A stretch of DNA of 64,000 nt from an uncultured Flavobacteriaceae bacterium (GTDB taxonomy: Bacteria; Bacteroidota; Bacteroidia; Flavobacteriales; Flavobacteriaceae): contig CANLWN010000004.1 of NCBI GenBank assembly GCA_947494825.1, positions 186,001 to 250,000 on the forward strand. The letters are read 5' to 3'. The notes beneath the pieces were generated by a model, which worked only from the letters and a program-made list of their open reading frames with translations, was not told the DNA's origin and did no database searches. This document shows positions 929-6,798 of this stretch, piece after piece. Positions within the stretch are counted from its first letter, which is position 1; every line of letters begins with the position of its first letter. Both the position numbers and the translations under genes were made by a program.

Positions 929-1960
929 TCACTTCTTAAATTTCAGGACCTCGGAACGTCCTTTTTTAAAAATCTTGTTGCTTGCGCCTTTCCCCTTTCT
1001 TAATTTCTTTTGCTCTTCAAAAGGCAGGTTGTGCACCTGTTTGCACTGGTCCGAGCAACAGTTGTCCATGGCCCTGGCACATGCTTTACATTGAATGAAC
1101 AACAAATGGCAGGCTTCGTTGGCACAGTTCACATGTGTATCGCAGGGCTTCCCACATTGATGGCAGTGGGCAATGATATCCTCCGAAATACGTTCGCCCC
1201 TTCGGTGGTCAAAAACAAAATTTTTGCCCCTAAACTTGTTCTCCAGTTGCTGTTGCTCTACTTGTCGTGCATATTCAATAATGCCCCCTTCCAATTGATA
1301 CACCTTTTTAAAGCCTTTGTGCTTATAGTAGGCACTTGCCTTTTCACATCGGATCCCACCCGTACAGTACATGACCAATTTCTTGTCCTCCTTATGGTCT
1401 GCAAGATCTTTTTCTATGATATCGAGTGAATCCCGAAAGGTATCCACATCAGGGGTGATGGCATTCTCAAAGTGTCCTATTTCACTTTCGTAGTGGTTGC
1501 GCATATCAACCAAAAGGGTATCGTCATCCTCAATAAGCGCATTGAATTCCTTGGCATTTACATGCGTCCCTTTGTTGGTAACATCGAAGGTGTCGTCATC
1601 CAAGCCATCTGCCACGATCTTTTTTCGGATTTTTACCTTAAGCTTTAAAAAAGACATATTGTCCTGTTCAATAGCTATGTTCAGGCGGATATTCTCCAAA
1701 AAACGAATACTGTCCAAGTGATTTTTGAAGGCCTCAAAATTCTCGGCAGGAACGGATAGTTGTGCATTTACTCCCTCATGGGCCACATAAATGCGGCCCA
1801 GGACGTCCAGTGCGTTCCAGTGAATAAACAAATGGTTCCTAAATATGGTCGTGTTGTGAATATGCGCATAGGCATAAAAAGAAATCGTAAGGCGTTCCTT
1901 TCCCGCTTTTTCGATCAATGCAGCCCTTTCCTTTGCGCTTAATGTATTGTACAGTTGCAT
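929..1960 (-). CDS. trhO: tRNA uridine 34 5-hydroxylase, rhodanese family
   Basis: This 343-residue protein matches TrhO/YceA, which uses oxygen to hydroxylate U34 in tRNA as a step toward 5-(carboxy)methoxyuridine. An N-terminal acylphosphatase-like part spans roughly residues 1-115. A rhodanese domain follows, with the active loop CTGGIRCEK whose catalytic Cys is C199. The C-terminus is a Cys-rich zinc-knuckle-like tail (about residues 265-310, with HCHQCGKPC and CNCCSDQC-type pairs) and a basic end. Length is near the usual 320-350. The start at 1960 gives the family N-terminus. The gene lies downstream of a candidate small terminated transcript on the same strand and is divergent from recA. 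Confidence 0.92.
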   Translation of the reverse strand: MQLYNTLSAKERAALIEKAGKERLTISFYAYAHIHNTTIFRNHLFIHWNALDVLGRIYVAHEGVNAQLSVPAENFEAFKNHLDSIRFLENIRLNIAIEQDNMSFLKLKVKIRKKIVADGLDDDTFDVTNKGTHVNAKEFNALIEDDDTLLVDMRNHYESEIGHFENAITPDVDTFRDSLDIIEKDLADHKEDKKLVMYCTGGIRCEKASAYYKHKGFKKVYQLEGGIIEYARQVEQQQLENKFRGKNFVFDHRRGERISEDIIAHCHQCGKPCDTHVNCANEACHLLFIQCKACARAMDNCCSDQCKQVHNLPFEEQKKLRKGKGASNKIFKKGRSEVLKFKK

Positions 1961-2032
1961 GCTATACCTCTAGATTAAGTTGAAGAAATTGTTTAGGGTG
2001 CAAAAATAATCATAATACGGTCTATAAATTAA

Positions 2033-2062
2033 AAAGAGCCTTGAAAATTTTCAAGGCTCTTT
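2033..2062 (-). terminator. Perfect 30-bp palindrome with U-tract on the minus strand
   Basis: The two 15-base arms (AAAGAGCCTTGAAAA and its exact complement) form a long hairpin. On the minus strand the hairpin runs directly into TTTTTAATTTAT, a typical intrinsic terminator tail; on the plus strand no T-run follows. It therefore terminates leftward transcription. It sits upstream of both divergent neighbours, trhO and recA, so it does not end either of them. That implies a separate short leftward transcript beginning between about 2100 and 2260. Confidence 0.75.
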
Positions 2063-2148
2063 GAAGACCACTCCATTTTTTCTTTTTCACAGAATTTAAA
2101 CCTAGGGTCGTGGCCACCGCTGCCCATGGGCCTTTTACAGCCATGGTA

Positions 2149-2156
2149 TATCTTTG
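2149..2156 (+). promoter_or_regulatory. Possible recA -7 box
   Basis: TATCTTTG matches the Bacteroidota -7 consensus TAnnTTTG and lies about 107 bases before the recA ATG. No convincing -33 TTG is seen at the right spacing, so this is tentative. It would overlap the small leftward transcript proposed on the other strand. Confidence 0.35.
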
Positions 2157-2262
2157 AACTATAGCACTTTTATAGCTTAGATACAGGTTTTCCAAAAAGG
2201 TTGCGTGCCCGTTGGGATATGCAAAAAGAAATGCTAATTTAGCATCCCTAAGATTATATGAA

Positions 2263-3270
2263 ATGAGTACCGAAAAAGACGCAAAATTAAAGGCCCTTAA
2301 GCTGACCCTTGACAAGTTGGATAAGACATACGGCAAGGGTGCCGTTATGAAGATGGGAGATAGTGTTGTTGAAGATGTGGAAGTAATTCCTTCCGGTTCC
2401 CTTGGTCTGGACGTTGCTTTGGGCGTTGGTGGGTATCCTCGGGGTAGGGTAATAGAAATCTACGGTCCCGAGTCTTCGGGTAAGACCACACTTACCCTGC
2501 ATGCCATGGCGGAGGCCCAAAAGAACGGTGGTATAGCGGCCTTTATTGATGCGGAACATGCTTTTGATCGCTTTTACGCGAAAAACTTGGGTGTGGATAT
2601 CGATAATTTGATCATCTCGCAGCCCGACCATGGGGAGCAAGCATTGGAGATTGCCGATAATTTAATTCGTTCCGGTGCCATTGATATTGTCATTATCGAT
2701 TCCGTCGCCGCCTTGACCCCAAAAAGTGAAATAGAGGGGGAAATGGGCGATTCCAAGATGGGACTTCATGCACGCCTCATGTCACAGGCGCTCCGGAAGC
2801 TGACCTCTACCATAAGCAAGACCAATTGCACGGTGGTCTTTATCAATCAATTGCGTGAAAAAATTGGGGTGATGTTCGGAAATCCGGAAACGACCACAGG
2901 GGGCAATGCACTCAAATTTTACGCCTCGGTGCGGCTCGATATCAGAAGGTCTACCCAAATCAAGGATACCGACGGAAGCGTTCAGGGCAACAAGACCCGT
3001 GTAAAGGTGGTGAAGAACAAAGTGGCCCCGCCCTTTAGAACGGCCGAATTTGATATTATGTACGGCGAAGGGATTTCCAAGGTTGGAGAGATCCTTGACC
3101 TGGGGGTAGAATATGAAATTATCAAGAAAAGTGGTTCCTGGTTCAGTTATGGCGACACCAAACTGGGACAGGGACGGGATGCGGTAAAAAGCCTACTTCA
3201 AGATAACCCCGAGCTCTCCGAAGAATTGGAAGCCAAAATAAAGGAAGCCATCAAGGTGGTAAAGGCCTAA
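2263..3270 (+). CDS. recA: Recombinase RecA
   Basis: This encodes 335 residues. RecA forms ATP-dependent filaments on single-stranded DNA and drives homologous pairing and recombinational repair. The Walker A loop GPESSGKT, the Walker B strand [11 protein letters not shown], the L1/L2 region with [21 protein letters not shown], and the C-terminal domain are all present in order. The ATG at 2263 (MSTEKDAKL...) gives the normal flavobacterial N-terminus. A longer in-frame start at 2212 would add 17 residues with no family counterpart and was not used. The acidic C-terminal tail is short. The next gene, a lipoprotein, begins about 90 bases downstream. Confidence 0.97.
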
Positions 3271-3357
3271 ACCAAAATTCGGGTATTTCGGCGGATTTGC
3301 TCTTTTAACTACGCAACCTTTGTCAAGGCCCAACATCTTTAAACTAAAAAAGTAAAG

Positions 3358-3792
3358 ATGGCTGTAAAGAAGATCTTTTTTATCCTTTTTATTGCTCTGG
3401 CAACACTCCTCTTTACATCATGCGATATTGATGATGGAGTAAGTTTCAATTTTGTTCCCTTGCAGATTGTAAGCGTGGAGGTTCCGGAATCCTTTGATTT
3501 AAATCGCACCCATCAAATACGCGTCACCTATTTAAGGCCCAACGGTTGCACCAGCTTTCAAGGATTTGATATTAGCAACCCGGACACAACGGTCCGCAAT
3601 GTGGTCGTAATCGGTGCCGTTAGGGCCGATGAGGCGTGCTCCCAGGAAACAGCCGAGGTGGAGGTCTCGTTTGACTTTATCGCTTTGTTTACAGACACCT
3701 ACTTATTTCGGTTTTGGACCGGTGAAGACACGGATGGGGAATCTCAATATTTAGAAGTGGAGGTACCTGTCAATGCAACGCCAATCAATTGA
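3358..3792 (+). CDS. Small lipoprotein of unknown function
   Basis: This 144-residue protein has a lipoprotein signal peptide: a basic start, a hydrophobic stretch and a lipobox ending TSC with the lipidated Cys at residue 22. The following residues DIDDG are acidic. The mature part is predicted to be beta-rich (alternating hydrophobic residues) and has two further cysteines near residues 63 and 94 that could pair. No known catalytic motif is visible. It ends about 34 bases before the ECF sigma gene and may share its transcript. An envelope location is well supported; the function is unknown. Confidence 0.8.
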   Translation: MAVKKIFFILFIALATLLFTSCDIDDGVSFNFVPLQIVSVEVPESFDLNRTHQIRVTYLRPNGCTSFQGFDISNPDTTVRNVVVIGAVRADEACSQETAEVEVSFDFIALFTDTYLFRFWTGEDTDGESQYLEVEVPVNATPIN

Positions 3793-3826
3793 TTTAAGTA
3801 AGTAGATAATCTAACCAACACGTATT

Positions 3827-4393
3827 TTGAGTCTGGAAGAACTCATAGCCAATTGCAAAAAAGGCAATAGAACAGCCCAAGAACAGCTTTATAGGAAGTA
3901 TTCCCGTATTCTGTTTGGTATCTGCCTTAAGTACTCCCGCAATAAAACGGAAGCGGAGGATAATCTGCATGATAGCTTTATGACCATTTTCAGCAAAATC
4001 GACCAGTTTAAGTTCAAAGGTTCCTTTGAGGGTTGGATCAAACGGATTACGGTGAATACCGTGTTGCAGAAGTACCGTAAGGAGGAATATTTAAACGTGG
4101 TCTCGGAAAATATCCAGGAAGAGGCCGAAGTAGATTCGGGCTATGCCGATATTAGTTTGGCGACCCTGTTGCAATATATACAGGAATTGCCCAACAAGTA
4201 CAGGCTTACCTTTAATCTATACGTTTTGGATGGATATACGCATAAGGAAATTGCGGGGCTGTTGGGCACATCTTCCGGAACTTCAAAATCCAATCTTGCA
4301 CGGGCAAGAATGATTTTAAAAGAAAAAATAGAGACCGACCGCACCAAGGTAATCGTTGGTATGCTGGTCTTTTTTTTGGGGTCTTATGTATAA
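3827..4393 (+). CDS. ECF-type RNA polymerase sigma factor
   Basis: The 188-residue product has region 2 near residues 20-85 (EQLYRKYSRILFGICLKY, then the EAEDNLHDSF helix) and region 4 near 110-165 with a helix-turn-helix around YTHKEIAGLLGTSSGTSKS. It directs RNA polymerase to a specific promoter set, usually in response to envelope signals. The start is TTG at 3827, which gives the family-typical SLEELIANCKKGN N-terminus; no ATG fits. The next gene encodes a membrane-anchored protein whose N-terminus probably holds the sigma factor, so the pair likely forms a signalling unit. The target genes are not known. Confidence 0.88.
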   Translation: MSLEELIANCKKGNRTAQEQLYRKYSRILFGICLKYSRNKTEAEDNLHDSFMTIFSKIDQFKFKGSFEGWIKRITVNTVLQKYRKEEYLNVVSENIQEEAEVDSGYADISLATLLQYIQELPNKYRLTFNLYVLDGYTHKEIAGLLGTSSGTSKSNLARARMILKEKIETDRTKVIVGMLVFFLGSYV

Positions 4394-4441
4394 GGTCTTG
4401 AAGAGGGAAAGAACATATAAAATTGCATAATTCATTGCAAC

Positions 4442-5968
4442 ATGAGTAAGAAAAAAATTGACAATTTGTTCCTAGCAAAGTTGAAGGACTTTGGTGAAGT
4501 TCCCGACGAAAAAGTCTGGAAGGCCATTGTTACTTCCCTGGACCAAAAGAAAAAAACCCGCAGGGTAATCCCCATTTGGTGGAGGCTTGGCGGTGTGGCT
4601 GCGCTATTGGCCATTGTATTTTATTTGACAGACCCCTTGAGCGATACGGAAGGTGATACCATTATTACGGATACGCCTCAGGTCGAGGAAAACGACGGTA
4701 CACTTAGGGACAGTTTTGAGGTCCCCGAAACGGCTGATGAAAAAGTAGCAACATCCCCGGAAAACACCGAGAGCGGTACCAAGGAAGACCAGCAAACGCC
4801 CTCCTTGAATACATCCCCCCAGGACACAGGTGAAAACGCACAATTGGCAGGTACGGATAAAGGAACAAACGAAAAAGAAACCCAAGTTGCGAACGTGAAG
4901 GGGTCGGCAAGGAACAAAACGACCCAAATTGCCGCGACGGACACACAAAAGGATATAAGCAAGAATCAGGTCCCTGTTGACAGGGATAAAAATGTGGTGG
5001 CAATGACGGAAGGAAGGACCAAGAACGACCCGGACAGCGTGGGGGAGAATACCCCTGTGGAGGAAAAGGGCAAGGATGGACTCCCTGTTGAATCCAACTT
5101 GAAAAACCCTTCCAGGACGGAGGGAATAGCGGAAGCTCAAGGGCAAAAGGAAGAGAATACGGCGGAAGAAGCAAATAAAAAATCTATTTTCGAAGCCATT
5201 GCGGAACAGGAAGAGGAAACCCTGGTAACAGAAAACAAGGGTGGTAAATGGTCCGTAGGACCAAATGTAGCTCCGGTATTTTTCGATTCCTTCGGCGAGG
5301 GATCTCCGATCCATTCGAGCTTTGCCTCCAATTCCAAATCCGGGAATTTAAATCTCAGTTATGGGCTTTCCGTTTCTTACGAGCTCAGCAAGAAATTGAG
5401 CGTCCGCACGGGAGTCCACAGAGTGGATTATGGCTACGATACCGATGAAATCTTATTCTCCTCATCCATAGATGGCTCTACCAATGACATCATTGATAAT
5501 ATTAATTATGCCCAAGCTTCTAGAAATTTGGTGGTGCAGAGCAAGGCCGATGGTAATCTCGATTTTGCGTCGGCCAACCTTGAGTTTGCTGCGGATGTTC
5601 CCTCGGTAGATGGTAGGATGGTACAGGAATTTGGTTACCTGGAAGTACCGTTGGAACTCAACTATGCCCTGGTAGATAAAAAAGTTGGGGTAAACATCGT
5701 TGGCGGTGTAAGCTCCCTGTTCCTCGTGGACAATTCCATTACGTTGGTGGGCAACGGACTTTCCACAGAAGTAGGGGAGGCCAATAATTTAAACAGTGTA
5801 AACTTTAGTACAAACATAGGTTTTGGTATAAATTATAAGTTTAACCCTAAGGTACAATTGAATGTGGAGCCTGTATTTAAATATCAACTGAACACTTTTT
5901 CGGAAACGGCTGGCAGTTTTAGACCGTTTTCCATAGGTGTCTACAGCGGGCTCAATTTTAAATTTTAA
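4442..5968 (+). CDS. Trans-envelope protein: cytoplasmic N-terminus, one membrane helix, outer-membrane barrel-like C-terminus
   Basis: Residues 1-42 are short, basic and cytoplasmic-like, with the motif DFGEVPDEKVWKAI common to flavobacterial anti-sigma-like proteins. One membrane helix follows at about 45-62. Residues 63-265 are a hydrophilic low-complexity linker rich in E, D, T, N and K. Residues 268-508 look like a small outer-membrane beta-barrel (alternating aromatic/hydrophobic strands, final residue F). There is no N-terminal signal peptide. Following the ECF sigma gene at a 48-base distance, it is probably the sigma regulator, binding sigma inside the cell while reaching toward the outer membrane. 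The anti-sigma role is inferred. Confidence 0.75.
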   Translation: MSKKKIDNLFLAKLKDFGEVPDEKVWKAIVTSLDQKKKTRRVIPIWWRLGGVAALLAIVFYLTDPLSDTEGDTIITDTPQVEENDGTLRDSFEVPETADEKVATSPENTESGTKEDQQTPSLNTSPQDTGENAQLAGTDKGTNEKETQVANVKGSARNKTTQIAATDTQKDISKNQVPVDRDKNVVAMTEGRTKNDPDSVGENTPVEEKGKDGLPVESNLKNPSRTEGIAEAQGQKEENTAEEANKKSIFEAIAEQEEETLVTENKGGKWSVGPNVAPVFFDSFGEGSPIHSSFASNSKSGNLNLSYGLSVSYELSKKLSVRTGVHRVDYGYDTDEILFSSSIDGSTNDIIDNINYAQASRNLVVQSKADGNLDFASANLEFAADVPSVDGRMVQEFGYLEVPLELNYALVDKKVGVNIVGGVSSLFLVDNSITLVGNGLSTEVGEANNLNSVNFSTNIGFGINYKFNPKVQLNVEPVFKYQLNTFSETAGSFRPFSIGVYSGLNFKF

Positions 5969-6013
5969 AGAGGTTGGTTAGGTTAGTTATTGCCCCAAGC
6001 AATAACGCCTTTG

Positions 6014-6045
6014 ACGCCCTGGCGATACCGTCAGGGCGTTTTTTC
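6014..6045 (+). terminator. Rho-independent terminator after the sigma/barrel pair
   Basis: Arms ACGCCCTG and CAGGGCGT enclose a 10-base loop and run into a T-tract. It ends the plus-strand transcript of the barrel gene. The convergent plsC gene terminates inside the right arm. Confidence 0.85.
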
Positions 6046-6798
6046 TGGTTCTTTGTGGCCCATATCGGCCTTTAGTTCCTGTAGAATCACATTTCTCACC
6101 TGTTCCCGCAGTATGGATTTATCCTCCTCTTTCAGTTGATCCGTTTTGAAAAAAGTATGTACCCTTACCCTGGTCCTACCCGGACCCCCGCTAAAAAAGG
6201 TGAACGAAAATCGCTTTTTGTTGTCATAGAAGGTAATGGGAACAACGGGAATGCCATGGGCTATGGTCATCTTAAAGGCGCCGTCCTTAAATTCGTCCAA
6301 CAGCACATGTTCCTCGGGGACCCCGCCTTCGGGAAAAATACAAATGCTCAGGCCTTGGCCCAACCTTCTTTGCGCCCGCATATAGACCCCTGTTCTACTC
6401 CTGCTGTCCTCACGATCTACCATGATGCAGACCCGTTTATAAAAAAACCCAAAAATGGGAATCTTCACCAATTCCTTCTTTCCCACAAAGACAAAGGGGT
6501 TTTTACTTGTTCTGAGCATGAGCATAATATCGAGCATACTGGTGTGGTTGGCCACCAACATATAACTCTTTCCCCGAACCATCTTCTGTTCCCGGATAAT
6601 CCTTGGGAAACACCCCATGCCATAAAGAATAGGTGCTGCCCATAGGTTGCGGGCCAGCCAAAAAAACTGGGGATAGGTCCTTTCGGAAAGGGTAGACAAC
6701 AAGAGGAATGGAAAAAAAAGTGCGATGGGAAGGGTAACCAAAATATAAAACCAAATACGGTAGAGGGTATAGCCAGTTTTTTTCAAAAGGGAAAGCAT
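6031..6798 (-). CDS. plsC: 1-acyl-sn-glycerol-3-phosphate acyltransferase
   Basis: The 255-residue protein belongs to the PlsC acyltransferase family, which esterifies the second position of lysophosphatidic acid to give phosphatidic acid at the inner membrane. The catalytic HX4D motif is NHTSMLD with H85 and D90. The second substrate motif, FPEGGV, is at about 155-160. A hydrophobic segment near residues 14-36 should anchor it in the membrane. Length is normal. Specificity for lysophosphatidate rather than another lysolipid is from family knowledge only. It is a single gene, convergent with the sigma/barrel pair and divergent from trpS. Confidence 0.9.
   Translation of the reverse strand: MLSLLKKTGYTLYRIWFYILVTLPIALFFPFLLLSTLSERTYPQFFWLARNLWAAPILYGMGCFPRIIREQKMVRGKSYMLVANHTSMLDIMLMLRTSKNPFVFVGKKELVKIPIFGFFYKRVCIMVDREDSRSRTGVYMRAQRRLGQGLSICIFPEGGVPEEHVLLDEFKDGAFKMTIAHGIPVVPITFYDNKKRFSFTFFSGGPGRTRVRVHTFFKTDQLKEEDKSILREQVRNVILQELKADMGHKEPEKTP

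What the first reader, a model, noticed from the sequence alone, without database searches (positions are those of the whole stretch)
3827..5968. ECF sigma factor with a one-protein trans-envelope partner
The protein has an anti-sigma-like N-terminus, one inner-membrane helix, a roughly 200-residue linker and a C-terminal outer-membrane barrel-like domain, with no signal peptide. If right, it spans from cytoplasm to outer membrane and could sense the state of the outer membrane directly, without a FecR/TonB-type relay.
Basis: partly seen in the sequence, partly recalled or inferred. Interest (0 to 1): 0.55.

Follow-up and report, generated by a model that had tools for sequence, protein, structure and literature searches.

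The report
Outer-membrane-anchored brake on a sigma factor
A gene-switching protein of a flavobacterium appears to be held in check by one long partner that reaches from the cell interior to the outer membrane; such partners are already known from gut bacteria, but here it comes with a sharply defined promoter, a predicted set of target genes and a predicted small RNA.

Summary
Window 3827-4393 encodes an ECF sigma factor; 4442-5968 encodes a 508-residue protein with a two-helix N-terminus, one membrane helix, a disordered tether and an OmpA/NspA-like barrel. The pair is adjacent in all 101 loci read (101 Flavobacteriaceae genera). [quoted passage not shown] This is a flavobacterial counterpart; homology to Dma/Reo could not be tested for want of their sequences. 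Three results go further. (1) A promoter, ACGCAACC-N15-CATCT, precedes the operon in 99 of 101 loci; a strict form occurs in 52 of 53 genomes with the gene and 0 of 7 without. (2) Elsewhere the strict form precedes lipoproteins (27 of 80 sites), transmembrane micropeptides (15) and rmlD (6): a predicted envelope regulon. (3) A second copy, divergent from recA, precedes a predicted terminated RNA of about 150 nt with covariation support; in other clades the place encodes a 30-residue peptide. Best reading: an outer-membrane-tethered brake on an envelope-stress sigma factor with an RNA arm. Sigma binding, signal and release are inferred.

The parts
3311..3338 (+). Predicted ECF promoter P1 (ACGCAACC-N15-CATCT) of the lipoprotein-sigma-Dma operon
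   Evidence: GCAAC...ATCT in 99 of 101 loci, spacing 15 in 98; in 92 of 100 upstream regions, 0.0 on average in 3 shuffles
3358..3792 (+). Small lipoprotein, first gene of the operon, no curated family reached
   Evidence: Lipobox LFTSC; homologue detected in 81 of 101 loci; NCBIfam NigD-like model 19.2 bits, cut-off 60
3827..4393 (+). ECF sigma factor (TTG start)
   Evidence: Pfam regions 2 and 4 above cut-off; next to the partner in 101 of 101 loci
4442..5968 (+). [quoted passage not shown]
4442..4570 (+). Cytoplasmic N-terminal domain, residues 1-43, two helices, W26 invariant in 60 aligned homologues
   Evidence: this stretch at pLDDT about 80-92 in the fused sigma model
4574..4630 (+). 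Inner-membrane helix, residues 45-63
   Evidence: hydropathy of 101 homologues
4631..5185 (+). Disordered periplasmic tether, residues 64-248, followed by a conserved helix 249-262
5249..5965 (+). Outer-membrane beta-barrel, residues 270-508, C-terminal Phe
6013..6040 (+). Terminator-like hairpin after the operon
2179..2205 (-). Second predicted ECF promoter P2, divergent from recA
   Evidence: 67 of 96 loci with recA, spacing 15 in all 67
2030..2178 (-). Predicted small RNA; terminator-like hairpin 2062-2033
   Evidence: Covariance model built without the window finds it at E 3.3e-12; covariation; terminator; fold z-score -3.07

Best explanation
[quoted passage not shown] Its N-terminal 43 residues hold the neighbouring ECF sigma in the cytoplasm, its single helix crosses the inner membrane, a long flexible tether crosses the periplasm, and its C-terminal barrel sits in the outer membrane. 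When the outer membrane or the barrel is disturbed, the change passes down the tether, most likely by periplasmic and intramembrane cleavage, and sigma is released. Free sigma reads ACGCAACC-N15-CATCT promoters: its own operon (lipoprotein, sigma, brake), a small RNA beside recA, and scattered lipoproteins, membrane micropeptides and dTDP-rhamnose genes, remodelling the envelope. Shown by computation: architecture, adjacency, promoter motif, promoter-gene co-occurrence, target classes and RNA covariation. Inferred: sigma binding, the signal, the cleavage step and what the RNA does.
For: Barrel and topology. Adjacent sigma in 101 of 101 loci, overlapping or within 20 nt in 82 of 101. In the fused sigma plus N-terminus model the sigma is closer to anti-sigma-bound SigW (151 residues, 4.8-5.0 A), CnrH (147, 5.5 A) and RpoE-NepR (144, 5.5 A) than to RNA-polymerase-bound ECF sigmas aligned over both domains (20-27 A). 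Promoter upstream of its own operon in 99 of 101 loci. Strict motif in 52 of 53 Dma-positive and 0 of 7 Dma-negative genomes; 181 matches against 4 for the reversed pattern. 27 of 80 non-operon sites precede lipoproteins, against 3 of 61 window genes, one of these three being the operon's own. Published parallels: Dma1 to NigD1 and vesicles; Reo is induced by antibacterial toxins, its regulon holds NigD lipoproteins, and its loss lengthens O-antigen.
Against: The N-terminus hits no anti-sigma family. The fused model forces the two chains together and gives no inter-domain error; unbound-type SigG1 also aligns (146 residues, 4.5 A), SigK in its anti-sigma complex fits worse (8.3 A), and AlgU-MucA and sigma-E-RseA align over region 2 only. 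No expression, binding or localisation data exist for this organism. Much of the co-occurrence is the operon's own promoter; without operon sites it is 36 of 53 against 0 of 7, from a truncated list. Six of the seven Dma-negative genomes are small (1.7-2.6 Mb). The release step has no direct evidence.
Confidence: 0.84

Rival explanations
1. The brake is a barrel-assembly monitor: sigma is released when BAM fails to fold the barrel and the unfolded tether is cut, rather than by events at a folded barrel on the surface. (A variant of the best explanation, not exclusive of it.)
For: C-terminal Phe, as BAM substrates have (recalled), in 99 of 101, no cysteine in 99 of 101; conserved helix 249-262 just before the barrel.
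Against: Published Reo is induced by antibacterial toxins. No cleavage site or protease was identified here.
Confidence: 0.4
2. The lipoprotein encoded first in the operon is the real sensor and signals to the anti-sigma factor.
For: Homologue in 81 of 101 loci, within 60 nt upstream of sigma in 71.
Against: Not detected in 20 of 101 loci that keep sigma and Dma; its place behind P1 also fits a target or feedback role.
Confidence: 0.12
3. The partner is not an anti-sigma factor but an outer-membrane protein that merely shares the operon.
For: No anti-sigma family hit at the N-terminus.
Against: Conserved N-terminus with invariant Trp, adjacency in 101 of 101 loci, and the same layout shown to be anti-sigma in Bacteroides.
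Confidence: 0.06
4. A FecR-type surface-signalling system relayed by a TonB-dependent receptor.
For: ECF sigma with a membrane partner.
Against: No FecR match listed at E up to 10 and the barrel is in the same chain; neighbours are recA, an acyltransferase and trpS.
Confidence: 0.02

Closest known systems
Dma1/Dma2 with Das1/Das2 (Bacteroides thetaiotaomicron)
   Same: N-terminal sigma-binding domain, one membrane helix, disordered tether, C-terminal barrel, adjacent ECF sigma; Dma1 controls the NigD1 lipoprotein (PMC13088901: abstract, introduction, discussion and passages read).
   Different: Here a lipoprotein heads the operon, the locus sits beside recA across the family, the promoter is defined, and a small RNA is predicted ('sRNA' and 'small RNA' do not occur in the main text of PMC13088901). 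Direct sequence comparison was not possible.
EcfO-Reo (Bacteroides fragilis, Phocaeicola vulgatus)
   Same: Anti-sigma spanning five compartments; regulon with three NigD surface lipoproteins; longer O-antigen when the anti-sigma is impaired (PMC13114119 and PMC9308784: passages read). Predicted targets here include lipoproteins and, at 6 of 80 sites, rmlD.
   Different: No small RNA in the passages read; the first EcfO paper is not held.
Sigma-E/RseA with MicA/RybB (Escherichia coli; recalled)
   Same: Envelope-stress ECF sigma with an RNA arm.
   Different: RseA ends in the periplasm and is cut by DegS; I know of no sequence or positional relation between those RNAs and this one.
FecI-FecR-FecA (recalled)
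   Same: ECF sigma controlled from the outer membrane.
   Different: Needs three proteins and TonB; here brake and barrel are one chain.

Membership tests
Dma family | N-terminal domain that binds the cognate sigma | tested here: inconclusive
   Conserved two-helix N-terminus; fused model compatible with a bound sigma; no family hit
Dma family | Single inner-membrane helix after that domain | tested here: met
   Helix 45-63; hydropathy peak 1.59 or more in 101 homologues
Dma family | Long disordered tether | tested here: met
   Residues 69-178 and 180-243 under pLDDT 50; 14% order-promoting residues against 37% in the barrel
Dma family | C-terminal outer-membrane beta-barrel | tested here: met
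   PF13568 above cut-off; Z 16-18 to OmpA, NspA, OprF, OmpW
Dma family | Encoded next to an ECF21-group sigma | tested here: inconclusive
   Adjacent ECF sigma in 101 of 101; the ECF21 group could not be assigned with these libraries
Dma family | Sequence homology to Dma1-3 or Reo | not tested
   Sequences not available; loci with sigma, N-terminus and barrel profiles exist outside the class (L368, L370)
Dma family | Regulon with NigD-like lipoproteins (shown for Dma1 and Reo, not for Dma2) | tested here: inconclusive
   27 of 80 sites precede lipoproteins; NigD model below cut-off for the operon lipoprotein; the other lipoproteins were not tested against it
FecR anti-sigma factors | FecR domain and partner TonB-dependent receptor | tested here: not met
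   No FecR hit listed at E up to 10; no receptor gene beside the pair

The most novel reading that the evidence does not exclude
The Flavobacteriaceae share an outer-membrane-tethered sigma system with an RNA arm: the brake releases a sigma that drives both a lipoprotein regulon and a conserved structured small RNA beside recA. In other clades the same promoter position has become a 30-residue peptide ending in DGG. It would be an independent counterpart of sigma-E with MicA/RybB, run by a single trans-envelope protein.
Probability: 0.6. Interest if true: 0.75.

Novelty: new variant of a known kind. Interest (0 to 1): 0.58.

Why it matters
How Bacteroidota sense the state of their outer membrane is open, and the direct signal for Dma/Reo is not known. 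A promoter conserved this exactly gives a ready reporter and a testable regulon in dozens of genera. The RNA and micropeptides are concrete candidate effectors that I did not see reported for the gut systems in the passages read.

Tried and rejected
Rfam over 1900-6100 gave three matches, all below their gathering scores. Pfam and NCBIfam gave no family above cut-off for the operon lipoprotein. A generic sigma-70 scan found 5 sites against 7.3 in shuffles. That P2 simply drives trhO was weakened by a terminator-like hairpin within about 175 nt of P2 in 59 of 62 loci of near relatives and the window (a second script found promoter plus terminator in 57); that it ends before trhO was seen in the sequences printed, not checked in every locus. 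A conserved reading frame in the RNA of the window's clade was not seen in the 25 rows printed. Consensus folding of 45 RNAs and of 19 supported only the terminator; I drew the three-hairpin structure by eye from single folds and tested it on 10 sequences chosen for similar layout, so it leans on that choice; one search counts pairs on an alignment fitted to that structure, with the training rows and two opposite-strand matches included. Exported proteins among the targets that looked like small barrels to me (G021, G037, G042) are not claimed as barrels: the one put to Pfam matches DUF3575. Flavobacterium psychrophilum promoter classes SM1-6 (PMC9723704: abstract, section 15 part 1, passages) do not give this motif in the text I read; the logos are figures, and the paper lists the rhodanese gene YceA as an SM6 target, which may or may not be the place of P2. 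The listings of searches (11 or 12 to 20 papers shown each) showed no description of the flavobacterial pair, the promoter or the RNA; the 2024 PNAS Dma paper and the 2013 EcfO paper are not held, so an earlier listing of flavobacterial members cannot be excluded.

Full report
What is there. The coordinates are exact. On the + strand: recA (2212-3270), a small lipoprotein (3358-3792), an ECF sigma factor (3827-4393, TTG start) and a 508-residue protein (4442-5968), then a terminator-like hairpin (6013-6040); an acyltransferase gene (6031-6798) lies on the other strand. The sigma passes the Pfam cut-offs for regions 2 and 4, and the partner passes the OMP_b-brl_2 cut-off at residues 298-481.

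Architecture. AlphaFold2 on 60 homologues gives two short N-terminal helices (3-14, 23-37), a membrane helix (45-63), disorder (69-243), a conserved helix (249-262) and a barrel (270-507) mostly at pLDDT above 90; I count eight main strands. Among Foldseek's top 1000 chains the barrel aligns best with a Legionella T4SS-associated porin (Z 18.2), NspA (17.8, 2.6 A, 147 residues), OprF (17.5), OmpA (16.8-16.9) and OmpW (16.8). All 101 homologues have a hydrophobic segment in the first part of the chain (peak hydropathy 1.59 or more, median 2.01); 99 of 101 end in Phe and 99 of 101 have no cysteine.

Conservation. A match exists in 102 of 120 Flavobacteriaceae genomes, one per genus. I fetched 100 of the other 101 matching genomes; with the window that makes 101 loci. 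The sigma lies next to the partner in 101 of 101; the genes overlap in 38, are 0-20 nt apart in 44, 21-100 in 17 and further in 2. The lipoprotein is detected in 81 of 101 and recA in 96 of 101, usually with the acyltransferase and trpS on the far side. A phylum-wide profile search hit 64 of 238 genomes at E up to 0.001, the strong full-length matches being in the family. Of 21 remote or paralogous loci that I chose by hand (18 fetched, 3 already held), 16 have a sigma beside a protein with the N-terminal profile; nine of these also match the barrel profile, among them L368 and L370 from outside the class, with weak E-values (N-terminus 0.005 and 1e-4; barrel 1e-6 and 2e-5). Four have no sigma match, and one (L385) has sigma and barrel without the N-terminal match. 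This is not a rate.

Binding to sigma. No two-chain prediction was possible. I folded one chain read through the stops between sigma and partner, with 23 in-frame relatives. The sigma's two domains are arranged more like anti-sigma-bound SigW (151 residues, 4.8-5.0 A) and CnrH (147, 5.5 A) than RNA-polymerase-bound ECF sigmas aligned over both domains (20-27 A); but SigG1 without an anti-sigma also fits (146, 4.5 A), and AlgU-MucA and sigma-E-RseA align over region 2 only. This is weak evidence: fusion forces proximity and no inter-domain error was returned.

Promoter. In regions upstream of the operon the core GCAAC...ATCT is in 92 of 100, against 0.0 on average in three shuffles. With a wider region it is in 99 of 101, with the 15-nt spacing in 98; the two without are L106 and L123. 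The window copy is 3311-3338. In 60 genomes a strict form gives 181 matches against 4 for the reversed pattern; 52 of 53 genomes with the partner have it and 0 of 7 without (Fisher 2e-8). Much of this is the operon itself. Of the 148 rows used, 65 lie within 5.5 kb of the partner gene (P1 and P2) and 83 elsewhere, in 36 genomes; without operon sites the contrast is therefore 36 of 53, a lower bound, against 0 of 7 (Fisher 9e-4).

Predicted targets. I fetched 80 of the 83 sites. The gene after the site passes a simple lipobox test in 27 of 80, fails in 52, and one site has no frame. Backgrounds: 3 of 61 genes in the window, one being the operon's own (Fisher 2e-5), and 26 of 2404 random window positions under a similar rule. 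Fifteen of 80 precede a hydrophobic peptide of 28-38 residues, and six precede rmlD-like genes, one put to Pfam and confirmed. The rest include SusD-like, other exported, and some cytosolic-looking or spurious frames. In this genome a looser form has 9 hits against 5 for the reversed control. Five of the 9, the operon included, lie 42-45 nt (from the first base of GCAACC) before the ATG of a lipoprotein of 123-171 residues; one is P2, and three lie within larger frames. Of the four non-operon lipoproteins one matches META above cut-off, one Lipocalin_4 just below it, and two match nothing at E up to 0.01.

Small RNA. A second copy of the promoter (2179-2205, minus strand) is in 67 of 96 loci with recA, always with 15-nt spacing although 13-17 was allowed. 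Among 80 named near relatives 61 have it; with the window, 59 of 62 have a terminator-like hairpin, median about 140 nt on. The window RNA folds at z -3.07; 1 of 200 shuffles folds as well. Automatic consensus folding supported only the terminator. A three-hairpin structure that I drew by eye and tested on 10 sequences, window excluded, has 15 both-side cells against 4.8 in shuffles (0 of 500) and 6 pairs with both-side changes against 2.7 (8 of 500), with changes in all three helices. The model built from them finds the window at E 3.3e-12 and 14 of the other 99 sources at E up to 2e-7; one of the 14, L038, appears to be the training locus L247. In the genome the next hit after this place is at E 0.01. 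On 44 distinct matches aligned to the model there are 149 both-side cells against 40, a count that leans towards the structure. In 32 of the 67 loci, all outside the nearest relatives, the same place encodes a peptide of about 30 residues ending in [KR]-x-DGG.

What is known. Dma proteins have this layout, and Dma1 controls vesiculation through NigD1, while Dma2 does not act through NigD1 (PMC13088901: abstract, introduction, discussion, passages). Reo spans cytoplasm to surface and is proposed to sense outer-membrane stress; the pair is induced by antibacterial toxins, and its regulon has three NigD lipoproteins; an impaired anti-sigma lengthens O-antigen (PMC13114119 and PMC9308784: passages). 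What is added here is the flavobacterial branch, its promoter, its predicted regulon and the RNA.

Mechanism. I read the protein as a brake anchored in both membranes. Disturbance at the barrel is passed along the tether and releases sigma, probably by proteolysis (inferred). Sigma then raises its own operon, the RNA and envelope genes. The signal, the protease and the RNA targets are unknown.

Noticed in passing
window 2030-2205 (-); L055-L129: In 32 of 67 loci with the recA-divergent promoter, a peptide of about 30 residues ending in [KR]xDGG (for example MKFFKKTIVNKALGVSVAITFNSSCKADGG) is encoded at the place of the RNA.
   Followed up: partly
L282, L286, L289, L296, L308, L311 and others: Fifteen of 80 motif sites precede a hydrophobic, single-helix-like micropeptide of 28-38 residues (for example MKILLIISILIVINLILLTFSVNKKTEP).
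   Followed up: partly
window 3827; L031-L130: The sigma frame starts with TTG in 65 of 101 loci, GTG in 24 and ATG in 12, by a first-start rule; a weak start may keep sigma below its brake.
   Followed up: no
L383 (G205): Two tandem sigma-Dma pairs with shorter partners (389 and 402 aa) in one genome.
   Followed up: no
L380, L381 (own genome): Another ECF sigma beside a 250-aa protein that matches the N-terminal profile but not the barrel, and a sigma beside a 373-aa protein with a weak N-terminal match.
   Followed up: no
L281, L301, L304, L327, L338, L341: rmlD-like genes start 66 nt after the motif in six genomes, suggesting a link to dTDP-rhamnose or O-antigen; one of the six was put to Pfam.
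   Followed up: partly
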